In this document: positions 883 to 32,800 of the stretch, piece after piece
Layout: every line of letters starts with the position of its first letter
How positions within the stretch are numbered: the first letter of the stretch is position 1
Origin: Strigamia acuminata
Taxonomy: Eukaryota > Arthropoda > Chilopoda > Geophilomorpha > Linotaeniidae
Assembly (NCBI GenBank): GCA_949358305.1
Contig: OX442317.1
Span: 4,344,186 to 4,408,185, forward strand
Direction: 5' to 3'
DNA: 64,000 nucleotides
The notes under the pieces: generated by a model
Told to the model about the DNA's origin: nothing
The model's input: only the letters and a program-made list of their open reading frames with translations
Databases searched by the model: none
Position numbers and translations under genes: made by a program

Positions 883-3346
883 CTACCAAAGGCCTTTAGG
901 TATAGCAATCTTTAAATTTTGTATTTTGACCCGCACACATTGAAACAGATGCTTAGTAGATTGATGTTGGTAATTAGTTAACATAAACATAAAAAGTGCA
1001 AAACTAAGGAAGTAATAGTGCAAAGTGGGTCGTGACAACCTCCATAAGCTTAGGGAATGTCCATAAAACCAATTCTGGTACCTCGATAAATATATGTGGG
1101 AAGAAATAACATTTCTCGTAGGACCATTTTCAGATAATCGGTTTAGAGAACAATCCGAGAGCAGCTTAATTAACAAATCAAAACGTAAAGCGAATCGTGC
1201 ATCACATGAATTAATCGTAGGTAACAACCAATCCAAATTGAATCGCATTAGATTAGCCAGAAAAGGCATTGCATTGGATTTTCCTTCAGTCGCGATGAAA
1301 TGGTCTAAAAGTCGTTTCAAGTCGTGTTGTTTGAATTCATATTCGTTCAATTTAAAGTCCAGCCACATGGCAAATGCAGCCGCAAATTCGAGAATCGACA
1401 GGTCCAACGCTTCGTAATAATTTTCTATTCTGTAGAATTTCCTTTCTTTGTGGTTCGATAGAAATCCACATTCATACATTATTTTTGTCACATCATTGCT
1501 TTCAATCGTTGAATGTGCGTCGATTATTTTCTCCACTGCCAACCTTCCAAATTCTCTAACATTTAACTGAATTTCACTGGCTGATGAATTTAACCTTAAC
1601 AGGTCGATATCACGTTCTTTGCGAGTGTGCCTCAAAATATAATTAAACATTTCTGCTAAAAACTCAGTTTTCGGTAGTAATTCTCTTAATTTTTCCATTA
1701 TTTCCGGTAACGCCATTAGAAGTAACGGGGAATCGAACAACTTTAACTGCGGTTGGAAATATTCGATGATATTCGATGATATCGTGGACAGTTGGTGGAC
1801 AGTTGGAAATTTTTCAAGAATTTCTGCTTCATTTCGACACTTTGAGCTCCTAATATGCTTATCTGCTTATCGTAGAAATTGTTGGACAGAATGGGTAGTC
1901 CGAACACCTGCAAACACTCTTGTTCACTTAATATGAACAGATCGGTTCTGCAGAACACCACAACCGTGACTTTTTTGAATTTTTGTTTATATAATATGTG
2001 CACAATTTCGGCTCGTTTGTGACGGGGAACTTGATCGAATCCGTCAAATATGAAGAGAGTATCTTTCTCGTGGGTGTTTACTATATGAAGAACATCATGA
2101 CAATCACATCTCTTGCCTATTGCTTCAATCGCTTCAGTGATTCGTTGTACTTGGTTTAAAGAAAAGAAGAAGACCAGTTTGAAATGTTCGATGTATTTCT
2201 CATTTCTTGCCCAGTCGAACGCTAGTTTGGCGGCCAATGTGGTCTTTCCAAATCTAGGCTGGCCTTCGATTAATATGCGCAATGATTTCTCCGAGTTGAA
2301 GCGGTTAAAAATTTCATTCAGTTCTATTGATTCGTTCGATTGATTGAGTTGCAGTGGAACAAAATATTCTGCCATTGGCAAATCAAATGCGCCTTCTAGC
2401 GTGGGCAAATTAACATGTTTGTACAGTTGTTGCAGTTTTTTTTTTAAGACACGGTATGAGGTGTCAGGTGTCACCCAACGGCTAATCCAAGATACAAGTG
2501 AATTTGAATTTCTTTTTCGGGTTTCTTTTTGGATTTCTTCTCTGATTTCTCTTTTAATGTCTTCTCTGAGGTTTCTTGTTGTTTCTTCAGCTTCTCCTAT
2601 AAGTAAATAAATAAAAATTAAGGCAAATTGAAACTTTGCTGAAACTTGTGAAATTAATACAAGTAGGTGCGTTCAGTTCTGGTTGGGAAAGTGACAAATT
2701 AATGCGTTTATTCATGACCTCTGAAATGGCGTTGATTGAGGTATTGCTTCCCCTAACAATGTATACCCTAGTTCAAATGGTGGCTAAGAAATATGCGTAT
2801 AAAAATCTTAAGGTCTCTCTGGCTCGCAAGAAAAGCATCCGAGTGATGTAAACTAGATATAAAAATGGCATTTCGTACTCTGTATACCGATATGTGCATT
2901 TGGTTGGCAAATCATGCGTTCATTTTCAAGTTAATTATCGAAAAGGAGATGTGACTTCTCTTTTTTTTAAATTGAACGAATCTGTTTTTTAAATCAAATT
3001 TTGAGCACATACTTTCATGTATTAAAAATGACTAACCTCGTTCTACTCTTCCCACTACTATTTGATCGACTCTGGAGTTCGTGATGGATATACCGGTACT
3101 ACTGTCTTTGTTAACAAGTGTATTAATATCAACTGGCACATGTTTTGCACCCATAATGTTAGCAGGTATATTTCCTGAACCCGTAGTATTTTGAGCTTGA
3201 AATTCTTCGCCATAAAATATGTCACGTTCACTATCGAAGGTACTCATAGTTAGAACACAATCTGTAAAATATTCAATAAATTTTCTTAGCAACACTTGAC
3301 TGTAATCCAATTTGGGATATTGTGCTAGCTCCCTGATCAACTCCAC
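883..3346 (-). pseudogene. NACHT-domain (NLR-like) NTPase gene, frame broken
   Basis: Two minus-strand exons join in phase. The upstream exon (3346 to 3037, its 5' boundary unsure) ends CGAG|GTTAGT in phase 1. The next starts at 2596 after TTATAG and needs two bases. Exon 2 reads a charged coiled-coil-like segment, then a NACHT NTPase: Walker A EGQPRFGKTTLA near 2238-2270 and Walker B LFIFDGFDQV near 2030-2060. The helical part continues in another frame from about 1740 to a stop at 883 (LFDSPLLLMAL, then LSILEFAAAFAMWL, typical of the winged-helix/superhelical region of NLRs). No leucine-rich repeats follow. The frame breaks at about 1745-1800, where a TTTCCAA sequence occurs on both sides of 50 extra nt made of short internal repeats. 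Family role: cytosolic STAND ATPases that sense and oligomerise. As written, the gene would give a truncated protein. Confidence 0.7.
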
Positions 3347-8154: not shown

Positions 8155-9110
8155 TACAGATTGCGTACTGACATAATTTCTGAGACTTTTTTAATTTTTG
8201 CCAATTTTGACAAAAACCCAAAGGCTAACCTATGGAGAAATGGCCAAAATCGGTCCAAAATTGAAAAAGTGCCAGAAATGAGCTCAGAAGATCGAAAATG
8301 AGCTAAAAAATGGATTAAATATCACATGCATACGCCTAACTCCTACAGTTGTTGAGATATCTGCAATAAACCAAGTATTCCGACTCCGACCACTTTTTCT
8401 CTTGAAAAATTCCGTTTTCCGACCATATCTCTGCAACCGTAACAGATAGGCATATGCATGTGATGTTTAATCGCTTTTCTAGCTCATTTCCGATCGATTG
8501 AGCTCATTTCTGGGACTTTTTTAATTTTTGCCAGTTTTGACAAAAACCCAAAGGCTAACCTATGGAGAAATGGCCAAAATCGGTCCAAAATTGAAAAAGT
8601 GCCAGAAATGAGCTCAGAAGATCGAAAATGAGCTAAAAAATGGATTAAATATCACATGCATACGCCTAACTCCCACAGTTGTTGAGATATCTGCAATAAA
8701 CCAAGTATTCCGACTCCGACCACTTTGTCTCTTGAAAAATTCCGTTTTCCGACCATATCTCTGCAACCGTAACAGATAGGCATATGCATGTGATGTTTAA
8801 TCGCTTTTCTAGCTCATTTCCGATCGATTGAGCTCATTTCTGGGACTTTTTTAATTTTTGCCAATTTTGACAAAAACCCAAAGGCTAACCTATGGAGAAA
8901 TGGCCAAAATCGGTCCAAAATTGAAAAAGTGCCAGAAATGAGCTCAGAAGATCAAAAATGAGCTAAAAAATGGATTAAATATCACATGCATACGCCTAAC
9001 TCCTACAGTTGTTGAGATATCTGCAATAAACCAAGTATTCCGACTCCGACCACTTTTTCTCTTGAAAAGTGCCGGAAATAGGCCCAATCGACTTGAAATG
9101 ACTTAAAAAA
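8155..9110. repeat. 330-bp tandem repeat, about 2.8 copies
   Basis: The phrase CAAAAACCCAAAGGCTAACC recurs at 8211, 8541 and 8871, an exact 330-bp period. Copies differ at only a few bases. Each unit contains the arms and core of the foldback family at 6.1-6.5 kb (GGAGAAATGGCCAAAATCGG, GATCGATTGAGCTCATTTC), plus a segment ending in GACTCCGACCACTTT. The array seems to have arisen by tandem amplification of a foldback element. Confidence 0.85.
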
Positions 9111-9120
9111 TCGTTTAATT

Positions 9121-11062
9121 ATGCCAAAACTTTGGCAAAACTTGTGCCAAAACGTGGCCAAATGTGAGCAAAAGCGTAATAAAATGTGTGCCAAAACATG
9201 GTAAAATGTGTGCAAGAACGGCAAAATGTGTGCAAAAATTTGGCACAATGTGTGCCAAAACGTGGCAAAATGTGTGCAATAACGTGTTAAAATATGTGCA
9301 AAAACGTGGTAAAATGTCTGCCAAAACTTGGCAAAACGTGTGCCAAAACGTGGTAAAATGTGTGCAAAAACGTGGTAAAATGTGTGCAAAAACATGGTAA
9401 AATGTGTGCAAGAATGGCAACATGTGTGCAAAACGTGGTAAAATGTGTGCAAAAACGTGGTAAAATGTGTGCAAAAACGTGGTAAAATGTGTGCCAAAAC
9501 GTGCCAAAACGTGGTAAAATGTGTGCAAACAGTGGCAAAATGTGTGCAAAACGTGGTAAAATGTGTGCAAAAGCATGGTAAAATGTGTGCAAATTATACT
9601 GTATGGCAAAATGTGTGCAAAAACTTGGCAAACTGTCTGCAACAACGTGGTAAAATGTGTGCCAAAACGTGGCAAAATGTGTGCAAAAAACGTGGTAAAA
9701 TGTGTGCAAAACATGGTAAAATGTGTGCAAAAAACGTGGTAAAATGTGTGCAAAACATGGTAAAATGTGTGCAAAACCGTGGTAAAATGGATGCGATAAC
9801 TTGGCAAATGTGTGCAAAAATGTGGTACAATATGTGCAAATATATGGCAAAATGTGTGCAAAAACTTGGGAAAATGTCTACAACAACGTGGTAAAATGTG
9901 TGCAAAAACATGGTAAAATGTGTGCAAGAACTTGGCAAAACGTGGCAACATGTGTGCAAAAACGTGGCAAAATGTGTGCAAAACCGTGGTAAAATGGATG
10001 CAATAACTTGGCAAAATGTGTGCAAAAATGTGGTACAATATGTGCAAATATATGGCAAAATGTGTGCAAAAACTTGTCAAAATGTCTGCAACAACGTGGT
10101 AAAATGTGTGCAAAAACATGGTAAAATGTGTGCAAAAACATGGTAAAATGTGTGCAAGAACTTGGCAAAACGTGGCAAAATGTGTGCAAAAACGTGGCAA
10201 AATGTGTGCAAAAACTTGTCAAAATGTCTGCAACAACGTGGTAAAATGTGTGCAAAAACATGGTAAAATGTGTGCAAAAACATGGTAAAATGTGTGCAAG
10301 AACTTGGCAAAACGTGGCAAAATGTGTGCAAAAACGTGGCAAAATGTGTGCAAAAACGTGTTAAAATGTGGCAAAACTTTGGCAAAACGTGTGCCAAAAC
10401 GTGGCAAAATGTGTGCAAAAAACGTGGTAAAATGTGTGCAAAACATGATAAAATTGTGTGCAAAACATGATAAAATTGTGTGCAAAAACTTGGCACAATG
10501 TGTGCTAAAACGTGTTAAAATGTGCCAAAACGTGGCAAAATGTGTGCAAGGGGGTGTGCATGCAAAACATGATAAAATTGTGTGCAAAAACTTGGCACAA
10601 TGTGTGCTAAAACGTGTTAAAATGTGGCAAAACTTTGGCAAAACGTGTGCCAAAACGTGGCAAAATGTGTGCAAAAAACGTGGTAAAATGTGTGCAAAAC
10701 ATGATAAAATTGTGTGCAAAAACTTGGCACAATGTGTGCTAAAACGTGTTAAAATGTGCCAAAACGTGGCAAAATGTGTGCAAGGGGGTGTGCATGCAAA
10801 ACATGATAAAATTGTGTGCAAAAACTTGGCACAATGTGTGCTAAAACGTGTTAAAATGTGGCAAAACTTTGGCAAAACGTGTGCCAAAGCGTGGCAAAAT
10901 GTGTGCAAAAGCGTGGTAAAATGTGTGCAAAAACGTGGGAAAATGTGCGCAAATCACGGTAAAATGTGTGCAAAACATGGTAAAATGTGTGCCAAAAGTG
11001 GCAAAATGTGTGCAAAAACGTGGTAAAATGTTTGCCAAAACTTGGCAAAATGTGGGCCAAAA
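9121..11062. repeat. 1.9-kb minisatellite, 11/22-bp period
   Basis: About 90 variants of a 22-bp dimer, roughly CAAAAACGTGG plus TAAAATGTGTG. The two 11-bp halves are themselves similar. Higher-order repeats are visible: a 234-bp unit (marker CAAGGGGGTG at 10547 and 10781) and a longer unit across 9840-10290. The array has no stop codons in several frames on both strands, so long frames rich in KCVQ or THFTTF are composition artefacts. No start context or codon bias supports a protein. Confidence 0.9.
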
Positions 11063-11186
11063 CGGTTTATCGTGTTTATATTTGCCGCTAATTTAGTTCC
11101 TTGTTCATGTTAGCGTCCCTCGCTCTAAGTTCGTCGCGTGAGCTTTTCGTTTTATTTTAAAGGTTTGTTCATTTCGTTTAGATGTC

Positions 11187-14475: not shown

Positions 14476-17400
14476 ATGGGCTTCTTTTCAAATTCCCGAG
14501 TAGTAATTATACTCATGACCACTTTCTGTAAGGGTAAGTCGTACCATTTGCATGTTCTAAATCGTTAAAATCATCAAACTAATCGGGCAAACGACCTTCG
14601 ACGAGCATCCGTGCAGAATGAACAACAGTGAGTGGCTATGACAACCAACAAAAGATAAAATAATTCCACATGGCTCCACATTCTGCTGAAATGACGAACC
14701 ACAAACTACAATTCTCCCTCGACACATCAAATTCCCAAACCGTCCAAAATACTGCGTCCGATATATCGTATTTTGCAGATAATAAATCCCGAGTTCGATA
14801 GTGCTGTTTCTAAGCCAAATTTCCGCTCTATCATTCTGGCCACTAGATGACGCCACTGTCCGTGTGATGGCGACTACACATCGGCGCGGAAAATTCAAAC
14901 TGAATTAAAAAGTTGCATTTCTATTTAAGGTTTTGCTGATATTTCAAAACCTCCAGAATTCGACAATGAACCACCTTTTCGCGTTGAATTCTCAAACAGT
15001 TCTGGAACCAAAATACCATGCACCGCAACCGGCTCTCCACCGATTAACATCACTTGGATTCAAGCTGACGGAATTCCCGTACCAAAAATTAACCAACTGA
15101 GACACGTTACGGATGAAGGAACCTTGGTTTTCCCATCATTCGAGGCTAAAAGTTACCGACAAGACATGCACGCAATTACCTACAAATGCACTGCAACAAA
15201 TGCAGCGGGGACGATCATCAGCAGAGAAGTTCACGTTCAAGCAGGTTGAACACAGAATGTGTGTTATTATTTTACGTAATACTTACACTTTTGCTATTTC
15301 AGTCATGGACCAACTATTTGAACCACATGTCTATGATGCTTTTGCCACTAAAGGAAGTACTGCAGCCATCAAATGCGTAATATCGGGAACAGTCACTAAA
15401 TACGTGATCGTTGATACGTGGATTAAAGACAACCAGAAAGAAATTAAAACTTCCTTCTTTGATGGTACGTTATCTTTCTGAATGCCCTTTTTACATGTAT
15501 GTTTGCCACTTAATTTATACGGTGTAATTACTTTCAAGATAAAAAATATGCTATCACAAAAACTGGTGACCTATTGATATCGAACGTGGACAGTTCAGAT
15601 GCCGGTAGAACTTATCGATGTATCGCTAAACACCGGCTCACTGGAGAAGTTAAAACCAGTTCAACGGCAGGAAAACTCTTTGTTACTGGTAAAAACGTCA
15701 ATAATAAATGCTACTTAATTACCTACAACCATTCTTACGTCAGAATTGCAAGGCAATGTTCCAGCAAAGATTCTAGAAATCGAACAAACTGTTTCTGCTG
15801 TTTTGGGGAGTCGAGCTGCTTTGCCCTGTGTGAGCCAAGGACACCCAACTCCTACTATCAAGTAAATCATATAAGTGTTTCTTTAACAAACCAGACTAAC
15901 AGCATGAAATTCTACTTTCCAGGTGGTTCAAGAAAAGCAGTACAGGAACAGTTCTACCCGTTGACTTCGACAACCGCATAAAGATAACCGGATTGGCTCT
16001 CATCATATCAAACATTCAAGGAAGTGATTCTGGATTGTACGTATGCGTTGCTGAAAATTCTATTGGAACTTCAAGAACGGAATTGATGTTAAATGTGCAA
16101 AGTAAATGTGGATAACAAAATTGATTTTTCAATATCCTAATTATATCAAGCTTCGCTTATCTAGAGTCTACTGAAATAACATTGACGCCTTCGCACATCA
16201 AATTGGAACCGAATGGAAACCAGAATTTAATCTGTGATATAAAAGCTACATCCGAGTTCACTGTTTCGTGGTACAGAAATGGTAATTTAATGCCAGAAAA
16301 GAATGGAAATCAACAATTGCATCCAGAACTAAGCGGCATCTATCAGTGCTTTGCTAAATCTGAAGATGATATGGTCCATGATTCAGTTGTAGTTATATCT
16401 AATTTAGTTGTAAGCATAATGTAGTGGCAGTGAGGAATTGAAGTGAATAATTGATATCCAATTTTGATTCCAGCAAATAAACCTCACATAATCAGAGGAT
16501 TTGAGGAAAAGATTTTAAACCCTGGAGATAGCATCAATCTCGAATGTACTGCTGCTGGAAATCCCACCCCAAAAATTACGTGGTACTTGGAAGAAGAAAA
16601 TCTATCCAAATCGAATTCCATTTATATTAATGAAAAGATGGAAAGTAGTGATGTTGTTATTAGTGAGTTGACACTGAATAAAGCGTCGGTAACCAGCGGA
16701 GGAGTGTACACGTGCGTAGCAAGAAATGATTTGGGAAGTAATAGCTACAGTGCTAGAGTAAATGTGTATGGTAAAAACAATTTAGTAATAGCTGCTGAAA
16801 CAGTGTAAAGAATATTTACTTTAATGTAGGAAAGTTAGGTGTGCGATCAGTGCAGCAAAGAACTGTCGTAGCTGGAGACAATTTGACTTTAAATTGTCCA
16901 TTTTATGGGTATCCGAAGAACAGTATTGAATGGGAAAAAGGTACCATATAATGCTTACAATAAACAGGTTAATACACATCGGATTTATTAATTCCTCATT
17001 TAGATTCAAAAACAGTGCCAAGAATGTTTCATCAGAGCGTGTTTCCAAATGATACACTGATTGTAAGCCAAGTTAAAAAGGGCGAAGATGATGGCAAGTA
17101 TTCCTGCAAAGTGTCAAACATTCAAGGTGAAACAGTAACCGGAACGGTAGAAGTGGTGGTAATGAGTGAGTATAACTATTATACTACAATACATGTTTTG
17201 AACCTATTCTTACTACAGGGTGGGGCAAAAGTCACGAACTGTTGGGAAGTCTTAATAACTATTTTTTTTTTTTTTAAATTTTTCTTCAACTATTTTGTTG
17301 AGATTAATCATGGAAAAATTCACAACCGAACACAGAACACAAATTGTTAAACTTTACTAACAAACCAAAGGATCAATAATTCTGATCCAACATCCAACAA

Positions 17401-20400
17401 TCAAATGTCGAATCATTGATATGTTCTTTGGATCACAATTGACCCTCATTTTCGATAGTAAAATTCCCAATTTGTGTTCGCTGTTTAGTGGTGAATTTTT
17501 CTATGATTAATCTGAACAAAATAGTTAAAGAAAAATTTAAACAAAATAAATTTAAAAATAGTTATTAAGGCTTCACACCAGTTCATGACTTTTGGCCCAC
17601 CTGTACGTATATTAAGTAAATGAGTAACCAATTCTTAAATTACTTCTAAATAAAACTCTATCTTATGTTACTGCATAAAGTGTGCAATGTATTCATAAAT
17701 TATTTCTTAAATGCATTTACATCTATTTGCAAAATTCAATTAGAAAAAAAAATTTAAAAAATACACACTTGGACTTTCATTCACTAACTTTTTCAGTTGC
17801 ACCAAAAATAATGCCATTTTCATTCCAAGAAGACTTATTGCGTGAAGGCATGAGAGCTAGACTTCAATGTGTCGTGAGTGAAGGAGACTCACCCATCACG
17901 ATTCAATGGCTTAAAGACAATGCTGTAATTCCAAATGAATTAGACATTAAAATTCAACAGATCGATGAATTTTCAAGCATTCTTAATATAGGACAAGTAA
18001 CTCCCAAACATAATGGCAACTACACCTGCAAAGCTAAAAATGCAGCCATAACCATGGAACATTCAGCCGTATTAAATGTCAATGGTAATGGTTTTCTTAT
18101 CTCGTCTTTTGCCTTGCAGTTCCTCCAAAGATTATTCCCTTTGCCTTTGTGGATGATCAATTCTACAAAGGAATGCGTGCCCATATCACATGTGCTGTGA
18201 GCCAAGGAGATCCGCCGTTGACCTTTCAATGGTTAAAAGACGATCGCCCGATCCCAACTTCTTTGCAAGATGTGGCAACGCGTCAATACGACCAATACAC
18301 CAGTTCTCTAAGTATTGACAGTGTTTCTTCCGGCCACACGGGAAATTACACCTGTGTTGTATCAAATCGGGCGGTGACGGTCAGCCACACGGCGCAACTT
18401 CTGGTTCACGGTAAATAATCAATCCATTGATTTAATCCATTCGGGGATTTCTTTTCCAGTTGCGCCCAGGATCATTCCCTTCTCGTTCCAAGACAAATCT
18501 GTGGTGGAAGGCAGACAAGCGAGGGTTATGTGTGGGCTAATTGAAGGAGATGCTCCTGTCACTTTTACTTGGTTGAAAGATGGATTGCCAATAAAGCCAA
18601 AAGATGTAGAAATTAAACGTGCTGACGATAACTACTCCATACTTTCCATCCACAGTGTCACTCGTGGCCACACTGGAAACTACACTTGTGTGGCTACAAA
18701 CGGCCTTACCAGTTCTGAATACACTGCTTCCTTAATAGTTAATGGTAATTGCTAATGCAACTATGTTTCGATTATTTTTCAGCTGCCCCTAAGATCATTC
18801 CATTCTCCTTCCACGATGGTAAATTATTCGAGGGAGTTTTAGTGAAGGTTACGTGCGTAGTTTATCAGGGAGACCTCCCAATTACCATAAAATGGCTGAA
18901 AGATAACCAACCGTTATCCAACGTGGAGGGTGTTAATGTCCGACAAGTTGATCAATTTTCCAGCATGCTAACCATAGAGAAAGTGCAACAAATTCACAGT
19001 GGCAACTACACTTGCACAGCGACAAACTCTGCAGCCTCAGCCAGCTCGACGGCAATCCTTGTTGTCAATGGTATGACAATCAAGTGATTAGTATTCTCTT
19101 TTCTTATATTTTGCAGTCCCTCCAAAAATTGTTCCATTTACTTTCCAAGATGGACATTTACTCGAGGGCATGTTAGTTCGTGTGTCTTGTGTAGTCAGCC
19201 GAGGAGACTTACCATTGAATATAACTTGGCTCAAAGACAATAAAATTGCATCCCAACAACCTTCTGTTAGCGTGCATAACTTAGACGATTACTCCAGTGT
19301 CCTGTCAATTGACCCAGTGACTAAGAAACATGATGGCAATTACAAATGTGTTGCTAAAAACATGGCTGGAACTGACACATTTGTTGCATCAATAACTGTT
19401 AATGGTAAATTATCGTTCCAGCAGTTAAAGAAGTTATGTTGCCATGTTATTTACTGAAATCAACTGTAGATGGATGGAAATATCTATTATTAAATTTTAA
19501 TTTAAGAAATTAAATCTTTTTTAATTAAAAAGAACAAGCTTATAAGATATTATTTCTACTTCAAATTTGCACAAGTTTGGGCAATTTTAATTTAAAGAAA
19601 TTGAGCAGAAAATAATATAACTTTGTAGGAGCTTCATGACTACTTTTTTTAAAATGCTTTTACTTCCGTAAAAATTAAGTCCTAATTCTTTTTTTCCTTA
19701 AAACTTATTTATTCAGAATTACCAAAATGGGTTGTCCAACCCAGTGACACCAAAGTTCCTATAAGAAGTTCAACTACCATACCTTGCATAACTAAAGGAT
19801 TTCCAAAACCAACAACTACTTGGTACAAAGTGCAAGGTTGGTCTAACTAATCCACACATTCAAACATTCCAAATAATAACGTTTATACATGATTTAAGGC
19901 TCTAATGCTCGAGGAATGAAAAACTTAATTCAAAATGGGAATAACTACAAACTGTTATCAAATGGTTCACTTCTGATTGAATCTGTCAACATGGAGCACG
20001 CTGGATATTACTTCTGCGTGTCAAGCAATACAATCGGAAGAATAAGTGAAATGGCTCTACTATCCATCAGTTGTAAGTGACGAAATTCCTCAATCAAATA
20101 AAACCATAATCAAATAAAATGTACTTTTCAGCAGTTCCCCCTCAACTACACAAAAAAAATCAAAATGACACCGTTAAAAGTGGCGATTCCGTACATTTCA
20201 AATGCATTGCGCATGGAGATAAACCCATGATATTTACTTGGTACATCAATGGGCAATTGAAGAATGCGAGTAATGGAAATAACGAGTAAGTTCACACAAG
20301 ATCCATACAGTAAAAATCAATCAATCACTCCTCCCAACTCACTTCAAGGTATCTCATAAAGCAATCGCATGATATTGCGAGTGAAACCTCAGAGTTTGCC

Positions 20401-23400
20401 ATAATGAAAGCAGGTCGGCAAGATTCAACAAACTTCATGTGCAGTGTGCAAAACTCCTACGGTTCGGAGAATGCTACATTTAACTTGCTAGTTTTAGGTT
20501 TGCATTTATTTACAGAACCACCTGCTTATGCTAACTAATATTTGATCATTACAGAGAAGCCCGACGCCCCCGGAGATATCAAAATAATCGAAGCGAATAA
20601 TCGCACGGTGGTAATAGGCTGGGCCGCACCATTTGATGGAAACAACCCGATCAATAAATTCATCTTGCAGTACAAACTTACAACTGGTAAACAAACAATT
20701 ACAATAGAAAATACAAAATCTGATAATCTGATTCTGATAGACAATTGGGAGCTGGGAACTCGAAACCTGACCCTTCCAGGGCGCAAATTGCAATCAGCAA
20801 TCAGTAATTTGAAACCGTCAGCAAATTATCATGTTCGCATAATTGCTGGTAATGATATGGGACTAGGATTACCCAGTGAGGAAATAGAAGTTCTGATGCC
20901 TGATCAAGGTAATGCGCGATTAATTAAATTACATTTAAAATTAAAAATGCATAAATTTAGCACCTGCTGGACCTCCTTTAAATGTGAATGCCATAGCAAC
21001 CGATTCAAATAGTTTGAAAGTATCATGGGAGGTAACGACAAACAAAACTCCAAAAACTAAATTTTATGACTAAAAGTTTTCATACCAAAGGCTCCTCACG
21101 CACAGCTCAGAAATGGCATCATTAAGGGATACAACATTGGCTATAAAATTGCGAGCTCGTCCGGCGCTTATCAGTTTCGCATGTTGGAAGTTCCCGAAGA
21201 TTACACGGCCACTCTCTCGCTGCCCATCAACGATCTGCACAAGTTCACTCAGTACAGCGTCGTCGTTCAGGCGTTCAATGACGGCGGAAAGGGACCGCTG
21301 TCGAAACAAGTCATCGCTGTCACTTCAGAGAGCAGTTGAGACTCGTGGCATTTCCAAAGTATCGATCGTATTTAGAGTTTATTTTCTAGTTCCAACGAAA
21401 CCACCTCAAGACATCAAGTGTTCGGTGCTGTCATCGCAAAGCATTCATCTCACTTGGCACCCACCCCCGCTGGCGAGCATTCACGGGATTCTGCAGGGAT
21501 TTAAAGTGAATTTCAAATCAGTCAAAGATCAGAGTATGTGTTGACGTGCATTGCAATTTTTTTTTCAACCAACAATTTCCATTAATTAGAAAATATAGCA
21601 CCAGAAGTCAAAACAATGAACACGTCGACCAAACTGACACTTCAAAATTTGGAAAAATACACAAATTACAGCGTACAAATCTCAGCAACGACTCGAAGCG
21701 GAGAAGGAGTTAAGAGCGAACCCATATTCTGCAGAACATTCGAAGCCAGTAAAAGAATCTTTTTGTAAATCAATAAATTTTTAAGTTAACTCAATATTGA
21801 ATCTCAGTTCCAGACATTCCTTCCGATGTGAAAGTTTTGCCAGTGTCTGCTCAATCAGTTATCGTTGCCTGGAAAGCTCCAACTCAACTGAACGGCATCA
21901 TTACTAAATACACCGTTTACGTTCAACCATCTGGAGCAACCAAAGAGGTAAATGATTAAAATACAAATCTAATTGCATATTCTTAATTTGCTGTGATATT
22001 TGTAGGTAAATGTGAAGAAGCAAACTGTTGGTGGAAATACAACTTTCTACGAAATTAACAATTTAAAACAAAGCGAGACGTACCAATTTTGGGTAACGGC
22101 TTCCACGGTGATCGGAGAAAGCGCCAAAAGTCGAATTGTTTCCCAATCCCCCAGCAGCAAATTACGTGAGCTGAGCAATGGCTGTCAATGCTATCGATAC
22201 TACACTAATTTATTTACTAGGTGCCGCAAAAGTTGCAGGATTTGGAAGTTCTCTCGTCATCAGCCAAGGGGAAGATGTTCTCCTTCCGTGTAAAAGTGTT
22301 GGAATGCCCACACCGCAACAACGCTGGATGAGTAAGAATTAAGCATTTATCATTTACGATTTATAAATTTCATTTCAATTTTTGGGAGTGGAAATATTTT
22401 CGATTTGGACCAAAAACGTACAACTTTAGCTGATGGATCGTTGCTAATCAAAGACACGGATGAGTTGGATTCGGATAACTACACATGTCACGTGCAGAAT
22501 GAACATGGACACGATTACATTACTTACAGCGTAATTGTGCAATGTAAGAAAATAAATCACACACACGTTTGCCACTTAAAATTGATGCTTAACTCATACT
22601 CAATTCAAACAAAAATTCTTGTACTAAAGCGGCCCCCGGAACTCCGTTTGTTGAAATTTCATTAATTACAACTTCATCTATTGACATCCAGTGGAACGTT
22701 GAAACAAATGGCGGCAGCCCAGTACTTGGTAATATAAAATACAAAAATTTCAATACCACCCCCAGTGTGTACTCATATTTACCATGCAAAATTTTACAGG
22801 ATACAAATTGTACTACAAACATGATCACAGCGAATGGCAGTTAATCGATTTAGATGCAGCTACAAATTCCTTCCACTTGGACGGTCTCCACTGTGGAACT
22901 AAATATCAGATGTACATGATAGCGTATAATAAGTTGGGACAGGGAAAAGCCACCCACGTGATTGCCACTGCAACCAAAGGAGGAGGTAAACATTAATATC
23001 TAAACTAACATTCTCTTCAATGTATGCATTCTTACTCCCAGTTCCGACCTCTCCATCCAAATCATCTTTGATCGAAGAAGGATCAAACTACGTCATTCTC
23101 AATCTGGATTCGTGGTTCGTCGATAAATGCCCCATCAAATACTTCGTCGTTGAATACAAAACTCGCACTTCTGTCCAATGGACTCTGCTGTCGGACGACG
23201 TGAATCCGGACAAACACAAGATCACTTTGCCCAATTTAGCACCGGCAACTTGGTACAATCTGAGAATGATCACCCACAGCAGTGCAGGCACCGCAGCAGC
23301 CGAATACACTTTTGCCACTCTCACTATTGATGGGGGTAAATAAAACAGAAAATTAATAACACCCATCATTCATTCTACGTTTTCAGCAACTATAATGCCC

Positions 23401-29241: not shown

Positions 29242-29819
29242 TGTGAAAATCGAGTGATTTTACGCGTGATATAAACTATTATTTGAATTGCTATTCTCAT
29301 TTTTGAATTGTTGTTATCTTTTATATTTCAATGTGTTGATTTGTCTTGTGGTTTTAGTTGTTATTTGTGTTTCATTTACATTGCTTTATCATTGTATATT
29401 TTTATTGATAATTTACCATTTTATTAGATTGAATAGTTTAATATTGTTGTAATATTTCTTATTTTACTGCTTCAATATATTTGTATTTCTTATTTGAGTG
29501 TTTGACCTGTTCCTCATTTGTAGTACCTTGCCCTGTTAATCCCTTAATTGGTGTGGGTTTTTCCTACCTCTTGAGCGCCGTCTCATTGGCGCTCTGAACG
29601 CGTCATCCACATTCCTCTACCCCTTTTCCCATTGTGTTGAAAATAGAATAAACTTTTAGTGTACTTTTTACCTCTAAAACGTGTGGTTGTGCTTTTACTT
29701 TGCTCCAACGCCATCTTTGAATTTCAACACAACCTCAACTTTATCCATCATTTGTATCCAGGAACTTTTAGAAACTTGTTGCTAAGTTTGTATTATTTTT
29801 ATCTTATGCAAATTTAACA
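29242..29819 (+). repeat. 5' LTR of the BEL/Pao element
   Basis: 578 bp. It contains an AATAAA at about 29648 that can serve as polyadenylation signal in the 3' copy. A GAGCGCC / GGCGCTC inverted pair lies at about 29573-29596. Confidence 0.93.
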
Positions 29820-29820
29820 T

Positions 29821-29838
29821 TGGTGCCGAAACCCGGGA
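29821..29838 (+). promoter_or_regulatory. primer binding site
   Basis: TGGTGCCGAAACCCGGGA starts 2 nt after the 5' LTR. Its first three bases are the complement of the tRNA CCA end. I cannot say which tRNA primes it. Confidence 0.8.
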
Positions 29839-29874
29839 GCTACTTAATTTCCCATCTAATCCAAATTATTCAAA

Positions 29875-32800
29875 ATGGTGAGAGTATTTGAGCTGAAGAA
29901 CAGGGCGTTCCGAGCGGCCATATTGGTCACCGAGACGCTCTTAACCACAATAACCGCCGCGCTGACCGGACGAGCAGCGATACCGCAAGCCACGATTGAA
30001 CTGTGGATGCAGCAGCTCGAGCAGAAACACAAACGAGCTCAAACAACGTTCGACGCCACCTTGGATCAAGCCAAATCTGATCAGGAAATCGACACCACGG
30101 TGCAGGCACTCGACGCGTTGGAGGACCGTTTGGCAGCAGCAAGAGCGGAGTTAGCAAGGTACATTCAAACATATTTTCCACCTTTACCGCCCCAAAACTT
30201 GCGACCGGACGCGGAGGCGCAACCGACGGCGAACATCGACGCACTAGCGGCGGCCATTACCGCAGCAGTGTCGGCGGCGACGCCACGAGTGACCCCAACA
30301 AACGGCCAGCCATTCATCAAACGCAAACCGCTGGAGATTCCCAAATTCGACGGGCGCAAACCTGAGGAGTGGGGAGGATTTTGGAAAACATTTTCCATTC
30401 AGGTTGGCGACGACGAGCAACTGGATGCAACACATAAACTGTTGCATTTGAGGACATATTTGGTAGGAGACGCGTTAGATGACATCAAAGCGTTGGAGAT
30501 TACAGCTGGCAATTATAATACTGCGGTCACACGCCTACAAAAAAAATATGGCGACAAGATCGTGCTTGAAAACAAATATTTGTCAAATTTAATTAACCTA
30601 CCTTTAGTCAACAGCGATCGAGATAGGATGGGGCTCCAGAAACTGCACAGACACGTAGAAATCAACATCGAGAATTTGGCGAACATCGAGGTACCATTGG
30701 CCGAAATTCAGCGTACCATTTTCCCCGTGCTGTCGTCCGCCATACCACGCAACGTGATTATGGAGTACGACAAAGACTGCGACGGAGAGAGGTCGGTAAC
30801 GAGGCTAATGGATTGGCTGAGCAGTTACATCGCTAAACACGCCAAATACGACATGATGAAAACTCAAACAAAACCTGATGCAGCAACAAACAAATCGTCA
30901 TTCACGGATAACGCCCACAACAATAAGGGAAAATTCAAACGAAAAGAAAAGGAGCCTCGATCTGGATCAGCGTCACAACTTTCGGTAATAATAATAAAAT
31001 GCCAATTTTGTGATTCCACAGAACACAACCGAAAGCGATGTCCACTCTCGATGGAAGAGAGACGTAAAAAGTTGCAAAAAAAGGGAATTTGCTTGCGATG
31101 CTTGGGAAAAGCACCCCACAAAACTGAGGAGTGCAGGACTCGCATGAAATGCTACAGCTGCGAGGGAGCGCACCACACACACGTGTGCGACACGCCAAAA
31201 TCTACGGAGGTCGTCGAGGGAGTCACCCATTCGAACTCAGTAGTCACCACCTGTCCTCCCAAGTCCGAATTTTTGATGGTCCAGATGGTGAAAATGGCCG
31301 GACCAAAACTGTCGACGTCGGGAGTGTGTTATATCGACGGGGGAGCTCAACGCACATTCATACGGTCCGAATTGGTAAAAAAACTGAACTTAAAAATTTT
31401 AGGGACAGAAACCATCAACTTGGCCGTGTTTGGACAAGAGCCGAAGTCAGAAATACGCAACAGAGTCGAATTAACTCTCAGCCCCGCCAATTCGAAGTCA
31501 CCAGCTGTCACAATCGAGGCCATTGAAACTGCCCACGTCACGTCCACGCCCGGAGAGCAGCCAAATGCGCAACTTAAAGCCGAACTACATCGAAGAAAAA
31601 TCGAGGTGGCCTGTAAACAAGTCGCATTGCATTCGAAGGAAGTGGACCTATTAATTGGAGTAGACCATTACTGGCGTGTAATGACAGGCCAAACGGAATT
31701 TTTGGAGGAAAATTTAATTGCAGTAAAGACTAAATTTGGTTGGACACTACACGGACAGACCACGAATGGGACAAGAGTCATCGCTGCGCCGGTAAGAATT
31801 AACAAAATTACGCTTACCCCATCGACAGATGACCTTTTACGCCGGATGTGGGAACTGGAACCGATTGGAGTGCGCCACGAGTCGGTCGAAGACAGCGACG
31901 ACGCTGAAACGCTGCAGAAGTTCGAAAAAACTATCAAATGGACGGGTTCAAAGTATTCCGTGGAACTGCCGTGGATCGTGGACACCAACGAGCTCGACGA
32001 CAATTATCGAGGAGCAGAACAACGCATCATGTCGCTGATTCGTCGCTTCCGAAAACAACCAAACCTCTACTTAGAATATAAAAAGGTTATCGACGAGCAG
32101 TTGAAAATGGGAATTGTCGAAGAAATTCCGAACCAAACTTCGACAGGGCCGGTCTACTACATGCCACATAGTCCAGTGATCAAAGAGGAACGAATTACCA
32201 CAAAGTTGCGAGTCGTATTTGATGCATCATCACACCGAAAAGGCCACCTTTCCTTGAACGATTGCCTATCAAAAGGTATAAACTTTCTACCTTCACTAAT
32301 TTTCGTATTGTTAGGATTTCGTCTTGGGAGAGTGGCCATGATGGGTGACATTAAAAAGGCATTTCACATGATCGAGATCGCTCTAAAGGACCGCGACGCA
32401 ACGAGATTTTTCTGGATTGATGAGTGCTGGGACGGTATAGGAAAGGCATTGTTAAAAGTATTGCGACAAACTCGAGTGTTATTTGGCGCCACACCAAGCC
32501 CATTTTTGTTGAGCGCCACCATTCGACATCACTTGCGCAAATACGAGAAGAAATATCCAGAAACTGTAAAACTGTTGTTAAAGTGCCTGTACGTGGACGA
32601 CTTCATCTCATCCCTCAAAACCGTCGCTCAAGCACTGGTAACATTTCGCCAGTCTAACCTGATTTTTACAGAAGCCGGCATGGAACTCGCCAAGTGGCAA
32701 ACCAACTCACCGGAACTCAGAGCCAAATTTCGCGAGGAATGCCCCTCTGACACACTGCTGACATCAGATGAAGATACAAAAGTGCTGGGAATCAGATGGA

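What the first reader, a model, noticed from the sequence alone, without database searches (positions are those of the whole stretch)
17166..19726. Five-exon Dscam Ig7 cassette with sub-minimal internal introns: a compact mutually exclusive splicing device
Five phase-1/phase-1 exons each encode a complete Ig7. The four introns between them measure 35, 49, 38 and 46 nt, all below the smallest other intron in this 36-exon gene (50 nt). The introns flanking the array (631 and 322 nt) are much longer than the 50-87 nt norm. Introns too short for simultaneous 5'-site and branch-point binding would bar splicing of neighbouring variants to each other while leaving each free to join the flanking exons. 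It is a minimal version of the fly exon 9 cluster, and the exclusion rule would be readable from lengths alone. Non-adjacent pairs such as A-C would need a further rule.
Basis: partly seen in the sequence, partly recalled or inferred. Interest (0 to 1): 0.9.

Follow-up and report, generated by a model that had tools for sequence, protein, structure and literature searches.

The report
Centipede Dscam swap-exon array
A centipede cell-surface gene carries five alternative copies of one protein domain separated by gaps shorter than any other intron measured in its gene family, a pattern shared by most of its sister genes that could stop neighbouring copies being joined together, though it cannot by itself explain how only one copy is chosen.

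Summary
Five intact Dscam Ig7 exons are separated by 35, 49, 38 and 46 nt. One coordinate is wrong: the downstream flanking intron is 312 nt, not 322. About 383 nt of the 631-nt upstream intron is a palindromic insertion.

The genome fits Strigamia acuminata. Ig7 arrays of 2-5 exons, suggested by transcripts to be mutually exclusive, are already reported in S. maritima, so the kind is known.

New here is a length rule across the family. In 36 Dscam genes, 91 of 97 introns between neighbouring Ig7 exons are 27-49 nt; none of 113 constitutive introns of 37 Dscam genes is below 50. 31 genes have only array introns under 50, 5 only ones of 54 or more.

Length cannot be the whole rule. It bars only neighbours; where no exon C is found, B-D gaps are 131-1103 nt; five genes lack it; and shortness may result from exclusion, not cause it.

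Also found: the A-E order is shared with a millipede, and the array is exchanged between paralogues as a block.

No RNA data were available, and a control on unrelated genes did not complete.

The parts
17004..17165 (+). Ig6b exon, constant exon upstream of the array
   Evidence: phase-1 donor A|GTGAGT
17166..17796 (+). upstream flanking intron, 631 nt
   Evidence: GT-AG
17219..17601 (.). palindromic (MITE-like) insertion inside the upstream intron
   Evidence: inverted repeats I1 and I2; L013 and L018 align through it, the other printed paralogues do not
17797..18084 (+). Ig7 variant exon A, 288 nt
18085..18119 (+). A-B intron, 35 nt
18120..18410 (+). Ig7 variant exon B, 291 nt
18411..18459 (+). 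B-C intron, 49 nt
18460..18744 (+). Ig7 variant exon C, 285 nt
18745..18782 (+). C-D intron, 38 nt; branch-point-like CTAAT 11 nt from the 5' splice site
18783..19070 (+). Ig7 variant exon D, 288 nt
19071..19116 (+). D-E intron, 46 nt
19117..19404 (+). Ig7 variant exon E, 288 nt
19405..19716 (+). downstream flanking intron, 312 nt (reader wrote an end at 19726, 322 nt)
   Evidence: AG at 19715-19716, in-frame ELPKW start of Ig8
19717..19836 (+). Ig8a exon, constant exon downstream of the array
17779..19408 (+). block homogenised between paralogues (94% identical to L010 at C5:3.73 Mb, against 68% from 19715 on)

Best explanation
This is a myriapod Dscam Ig7 exon array from which one exon is probably chosen per transcript. 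Shown: five class-conserved exons A-E, all frame-neutral, with inter-exon introns of 27-49 nt in 31 genes, below the smallest (50 nt) of 113 constitutive introns measured in Dscam genes of this genome. Inferred: such an intron is too short for U1 at its 5' splice site and U2/U2AF at its branch point to sit together, so two neighbouring variants cannot be joined to each other, while each can still be joined to the constant Ig6b and Ig8a exons. Inferred: since every exon is a multiple of 3, double inclusion would not be removed by nonsense-mediated decay, so exclusion has to act at splicing. The short introns explain neighbours only. A second layer, not identified here, must choose the exon and bar A+C, A+D, A+E, B+D, B+E and C+E.
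For: 91 of 97 neighbour introns are below 50 nt and 0 of 113 constitutive introns are (for 96 and 113, for one more). Every array intron is shorter than every constitutive one in 29 of 30 genes with both kinds measured. Of 30 genes with two or more neighbour introns measured, 29 have all under 50, one (L027) all over, none is mixed. A-B lengths differ between lineages (27, 29, 35, 37, 49) without reaching 50 in compact genes. Best branch-point-like motif to 5' splice site: median 15 nt in 91 array introns, 36 nt in 86 constitutive ones (weights recalled, and the distance depends on intron length). In human work, under about 50 nt between donor and branch point is the criterion for steric interference (PMC5740500, PMC7969005, passages). 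Transcripts of S. maritima suggest mutually exclusive use of many such exons (PMC4244043, passages).
Against: No transcript evidence in this species. Whether this genome splices introns below 50 nt in unrelated genes was not tested (control did not complete). Some animals do splice introns of this size (recalled). Five genes have array introns of 54-472 nt, and 16 arrays have B-D introns of 131-1103 nt, so length is not needed for every pair. 57 of the 91 short introns belong to 15 genes of one homogenised family, so the independent number is far below 91. The branch-point motif also lies within 25 nt of the 5' splice site in 21 of 86 constitutive introns, and is 36 nt away in the window's D-E intron. 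For the window itself one of four docking scans (3' flank against acceptors) beat all 12 shuffles. In human MXE clusters steric interference was a candidate in only 9%. The window copy has an unreconciled Ig4-Ig5 joint, and the arrays of L011 and L040 are damaged.
Confidence: 0.55

Rival explanations
1. Relaxed floor: exclusivity is enforced by something else. Because introns between variants are never removed as introns, nothing keeps them above the spliceable minimum, and they erode until little but the splice signals remains. Shortness is a consequence, not the cause.
For: Beetle Dscam1 exon 6 clusters have more than 45% of inter-variant introns under 50 bp and are explained by docking-selector pairing (PMC8042237, passages). 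The shortest introns here, 27 nt, hold little beyond splice sites. Five genes and the B-D gaps show arrays can exist without short introns.
Against: Without a ceiling one expects mixtures within genes, as reported for beetles; here none of 30 genes with two or more measured introns is mixed. In compact genes 0 of 91 array introns exceed 100 nt against 6 of 96 constitutive ones, Fisher p 0.03, not corrected for shared ancestry or for the smaller target.
Confidence: 0.35
2. Fly-type competing RNA pairing: a docking site in a flanking intron pairs with one selector at a time, the selectors lying partly in the exons because the introns leave no room.
For: Described for insect Dscam1 exon 4, 6 and 9 clusters, with partly exonic selectors in beetles and clade-specific docking sites (PMC8042237, passages). 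It would supply the missing rule for non-neighbours. 9 of 12 paralogues keep 3'-flank similarity to the window above their shuffles, L019 barely. In the window, the 3' flank against the five acceptors beat all 12 shuffles.
Against: In 6 of 10 paralogues the 5' flanking intron, and in 3 of 12 the 3' one, shows no similarity to the window's above shuffles, although the array is 89-94% identical in L010, L019, L020 and L022, where it aligns alone. Scans for a flank segment pairing with all variants beat all 12 shuffles in 6 of 48 tests, about 4 expected, with no consistent place (weak test, shuffling of two-base blocks).
Confidence: 0.3
3. All variants are spliced in tandem into one long protein, as public gene models show, and the short gaps are ordinary introns.
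For: 8 of 9 S. maritima and 5 of 6 Chamberlinius proteins examined contain three to five Ig7 domains in a row.
Against: These would be the only introns below 50 nt among 210 measured in the family (97 array, 113 constitutive). The S. maritima genome paper reports transcripts that suggest mutual exclusion. One such model reads straight through an A-B gap as coding (P0020), which looks like an annotation error.
Confidence: 0.06

Closest known systems
Strigamia maritima Dscam paralogues with duplicated Ig7 exons (Chipman et al. 2014, PMC4244043, passages read; its ref. 107, recalled as Brites et al. 2013, not read)
   Same: 60-80 Dscam paralogues, 40 with the Ig7 exon duplicated two to five times, transcripts suggestive of mutual exclusion; UniRef proteins P0007, P0008 and P0011 of that species carry the same classes at 79-92% identity.
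   Different: The passages read give no intron lengths, no mechanism, no class orthology beyond centipedes and no exchange between paralogues.
Insect and crustacean Dscam1 exon 9 (Ig7) cluster
   Same: Tandem alternative Ig7 exons inside a canonical Dscam gene.
   Different: Here at most five variants per gene in many genes, inter-variant introns all under 50 nt in 31 genes, and no consistent docking site found.
Beetle Dscam1 exon 6 cluster (PMC8042237, passages)
   Same: Inter-variant introns under 50 bp are common (more than 45%).
   Different: There a mixture of lengths with docking-selector pairs; here no mixed gene among 30 with two or more introns measured.
Steric-hindrance MXEs such as OGDH 4a/4b (PMC7969005, passages) and Dscam exon 17 (known here only from a sentence and a reference entry in that paper)
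   Same: 5' splice site too close to the branch point for both to be used.
   Different: Those are pairs of exons; a five-exon array leaves six non-neighbour pairs unexplained.
Chelicerate sDscam 5' cassettes (PMC4835542, passages)
   Same: Repeated Ig7 units.
   Different: There variable cassettes lie at the 5' end with alternative promoters; here the array is internal, after Ig6.

Membership tests
Arthropod Dscam, Ig7 position | Ig domain most similar to Dscam Ig7, between Ig6 and Ig8 exons | tested here: met
   exon D aligns with the seventh Ig of PDB 3dmk, 57.8 bits; constant exons on both sides
Mutually exclusive exon array | tandem homologous exons with equal phase and frame-neutral length | tested here: met
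   five exons, phase 1-1, multiples of 3; B-E 46-49% identical to A
Mutually exclusive exon array | exactly one variant per mRNA | not testable with these tools
   no RNA data; suggested for S. maritima by PMC4244043
Steric-hindrance MXE | inter-exon intron shorter than introns the same genes splice | tested here: met
   91 of 97 under 50 nt against 0 of 113
Steric-hindrance MXE | all pairs of variants sterically blocked | tested here: not met
   non-neighbours are hundreds of nt apart; B-D 131-1103 nt in 16 arrays without a detected C
Steric-hindrance MXE | genome does not splice introns of this size | not tested
   control search did not complete; only Dscam introns measured
Docking-selector MXE (fly type) | conserved flanking-intron docking site pairing with every variant | tested here: inconclusive
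   6 of 48 scans beat all shuffles, about 4 expected, one of the six in the window; flank similarity absent in 6 of 10 (5') and 3 of 12 (3') paralogues
Chelicerate sDscam | 5'-terminal cassettes with alternative promoters | tested here: not met
   Ig exons upstream of Ig7 precede the array on the same strand; promoters not tested

The most novel reading that the evidence does not exclude
An Ig7 cassette older than the centipede-millipede split, in which neighbour exclusion is hard-wired by introns held under a ceiling of about 49 nt. In genes without exon C the same rule makes two exclusive pairs (A or B, D or E), which would allow transcripts carrying one exon of each pair. The short introns also keep the 1.6-kb array continuous enough to be copied between paralogues as one module.
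Probability: 0.25. Interest if true: 0.8.

Novelty: new variant of a known kind. Interest (0 to 1): 0.6.

Why it matters
How one exon is chosen from a tandem array is a long-standing question, answered in insects by long-range RNA pairing. Thirty-one natural arrays with sub-50-nt gaps, beside five sister genes without them, make the competing ideas (length as cause or as consequence) directly testable by counting junctions in long reads. If length is causal, part of a splicing rule can be read from sequence. The exchange of whole arrays between genes also invites comparison with Daphnia arrays 4 and 6, where no gene conversion was found between exons of one array (PMC3236188, passages); that is a different comparison from the one made here, between same-class exons of different genes.

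Tried and rejected
Considered and rejected: strong constraint on synonymous sites in the array. In the closest pairs (window with L013, L018) array fourfold divergence (0.134, 0.159) is not below that of constant exons (0.115, 0.118), so exchange between genes fits better. Rejected: the 19-nt 'D-E intron' of L011; exon D there has lost its end and donor, so it is dropped (97 to 96). Led nowhere: the flank pairing scan. Not used: Rfam search, structure prediction.

Control not obtained: a search with PF00118 for intron sizes in unrelated genes was sent 16 times unchanged and never answered. The 50-nt floor therefore rests on Dscam genes alone.

Limits: introns were placed by projecting window exons with tblastn and taking the nearest in-phase GT and AG, not from transcripts; only GT and AG were accepted. 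11 of the 113 constitutive introns had boundaries more than 3 nt from projection, and 2 more (about 71 and 82 nt) had no in-phase pair and were dropped. Only intron types near the array and the window's own were counted; 96 of the 113 are in compact genes. Loci overlapping one gene were merged by hand. L016 and L017 have identical arrays at two places and are both counted; L017 is left out (apart from one per-pair line). 'Without exon C' means none detected. The gene set is what two capped searches (150 candidates scored each) returned, and not all of their places were fetched. A-B lengths of 88 (L026 gene) and 302 (L028 gene) were worked out by hand from hit coordinates and are in no count. 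The groups tested were chosen after seeing constant-exon similarities; 12 of 14 close genes were in those trees.

Species: inferred from span (237.5 Mb) and scaffold lengths (C1 66,985,994 and C4 19,343,292 against longest 67.0 Mb and N50 19.3 Mb) in PMC10556566 (abstract and passages), not from a marker gene; 157 contigs here against 158 scaffolds there.

Not-in-print statement: the listings, and the passages read, showed no report of intron lengths, millipede class orthology or block exchange for myriapod Dscam arrays; the primary centipede paper was not seen.
Full report
What is there. The window lies in a 237.5-Mb genome at C5:4344186-4408185. Span and scaffold sizes match the published Strigamia acuminata assembly (PMC10556566, abstract and passages); this is an inference. 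The gene on the + strand is a Dscam. Its Ig7 position holds five exons, A-E, each a whole Ig domain, phase 1 to phase 1, lengths 288, 291, 285, 288 and 288 nt. Exon D, the one tested, aligns best with the seventh Ig of fly Dscam 1.30.30 among that chain's domains. The introns between them are 35, 49, 38 and 46 nt, and the 18 other introns placed run from 52 to 74 nt. The upstream intron is 631 nt, but 383 nt of it is a palindromic insertion through which, among the printed paralogues, only L013 and L018 align.

Is it known? Largely. The S. maritima genome paper reports 60-80 Dscam paralogues, 40 of them with the Ig7 exon duplicated two to five times, and transcripts that suggest mutual exclusion (PMC4244043, passages). 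So the array belongs to a described set. The passages give no intron length or mechanism.

The length pattern runs through the family. Two capped searches of the genome led to 36 genes with at least one pair of neighbouring classes in sequence I held. After merging overlapping loci and dropping one artefact, 91 of 97 neighbour introns are 27-49 nt; the six others are 54, 58, 209, 423, 447 and 472 nt. Of 113 constitutive introns from 37 Dscam genes, 30 of them with arrays, none is below 50 (minimum 50, median 63). By distinct sequence, without L069, the counts are 68 of 73 and 0 of 109. In 29 of 30 genes with both kinds measured, the longest array intron is shorter than the shortest constitutive one. 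Of 30 genes with two or more neighbour introns measured, 29 have all under 50, one (L027) all over, and none is mixed; five more's list have a single measured intron, and L069 makes a sixth. In all, 31 genes are compact and five released (L026, L027, L028, L066 on C4 at 11.16-11.92 Mb, and L069 on C5 at 3.15 Mb).

How independent is this? Less than the counts suggest. 57 of the 91 short introns come from 15 genes of the window's own type. Among 14 of these the A-B, B-C and C-D introns are 88-94% identical, D-E 79% with L011's artefact included, against 53-65% for constitutive introns. But the array exons are alike too: fourfold-site divergence is 0.13-0.24 in A-E and 0.39-0.53 in neighbouring constant exons. 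The constant-exon groups {window, L012, L013, L014, L018} and {L015, L016, L021} each have 100% bootstrap in a constant tree of 12 genes and are rejected by the array exons (AU p 1.6e-5 and 1.6e-93). C-D and D-E intron types occur in all four combinations (38/46 window, 38/41 L016, 35/46 L013, 35/41 L012). So the array is copied between genes, including ones on C1 and C11. Gene conversion is the natural reading. In four comparisons (L010, L019, L020, L022) the alignable block ends 9-32 nt before exon A and 4-9 nt after exon E; in others it runs on downstream. The C4 genes give more diverged lineages in which lengths differ (A-B 27-29 nt in several) yet stay under 50.

The array is old. S. maritima UniRef proteins and NCBI proteins of the millipede Chamberlinius hold the same classes in the same order. 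In a tree of 109 Ig7 domains, class B (100/98), D (98/86) and C (98/78) each unite centipede and millipede rows; E is weaker (90/74), A is unresolved, one S. acuminata exon called E (L053) sits beside D, and the program warns of few columns. One millipede model reads through the A-B gap; its 15 extra residues imply a gap of 45 nt (P0020; inference from protein).

How it most likely works. A gap of 27-49 nt leaves the best branch-point-like motif a median of 15 nt from the 5' splice site, against 36 nt in constitutive introns; the scan is crude and 21 of 86 constitutive introns are also within 25 nt. Under the roughly 50-nt criterion used in human work the two complexes could not assemble together, so neighbours could not be joined, while joins to Ig6b and Ig8a remain open. 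Since all variants are frame-neutral, decay cannot clean up double inclusion. These steps are inferred.

What it does not explain. Six of ten pairs in a five-exon array are not neighbours. In 16 arrays without a detected exon C the B-D intron is 131-1103 nt (131-527 in the 13 compact ones). Five genes have no short gap. A fly-type docking site was not found, but the tests were weak: 6 of 48 pairing scans beat all shuffles, about 4 expected, one of the six being the window's 3' flank against its acceptors, and 9 of 12 paralogues keep some 3'-flank similarity with the window. Beetle Dscam1 exon 6 clusters combine many introns under 50 bp with docking-selector pairing (PMC8042237, passages), so short gaps can coexist with, or follow from, another mechanism. 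Whether length is cause or consequence is open; I lean to cause, for neighbours, because no gene is mixed.

Verdict. Observation confirmed with one coordinate corrected; interpretation partly supported; kind known, with a new, quantitative and testable variant. The main gaps are RNA evidence and an intron-length control on unrelated genes.

Noticed in passing
window 16395-16490: The Ig4 exon end differs from two paralogues (L041, L043): the donor there is phase 1, in the window phase 0, while the Ig5 acceptor needs phase 1. The window copy may be frameshifted or spliced unusually.
   Followed up: partly
window 22320-22400: I found no frame-compatible AG acceptor for the Ig10a-Ig10b joint, yet the sequence is nearly the same in the paralogue of L018; a non-canonical acceptor, a shared lesion or a wrong model.
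   Followed up: partly
L011, about 1760-1810: Exon D has lost its 3' end and donor by a short deletion, leaving what looks like a natural four-exon array.
   Followed up: yes
L040 after 2122, and L023: Array broken after exon C: donor lost, unrelated sequence, truncated exon D about 2 kb away.
   Followed up: partly
L069 (C5:3151190-3152020): Two Ig7 exons, A-like and B-like, 209 nt apart with GT-AG: a fifth gene without the short gap.
   Followed up: partly
P0007, P0008, P0010-P0012, P0014-P0021: Public gene models of S. maritima and Chamberlinius place three to five Ig7 variants in one protein, probably an annotation error if the exons are mutually exclusive.
   Followed up: partly
P0006 (Polyplax serrata): A louse Dscam-like model reads through two Ig7-Ig7 gaps with about 8 extra residues each, hinting at inter-variant gaps near 24 nt there too (from protein only).
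   Followed up: no
window 9003-11066: Long repetitive open frames on both strands, apparently a tandem repeat array.
   Followed up: no
window 883-2672, - strand: Open frames with a P-loop NTPase look (GQPRFGKTTLAAKLAFDWAR), possibly a NACHT-type gene (recalled resemblance).
   Followed up: no
window about 29800-31000, + strand: Open frame resembling a retrotransposon gag (recalled resemblance).
   Followed up: no
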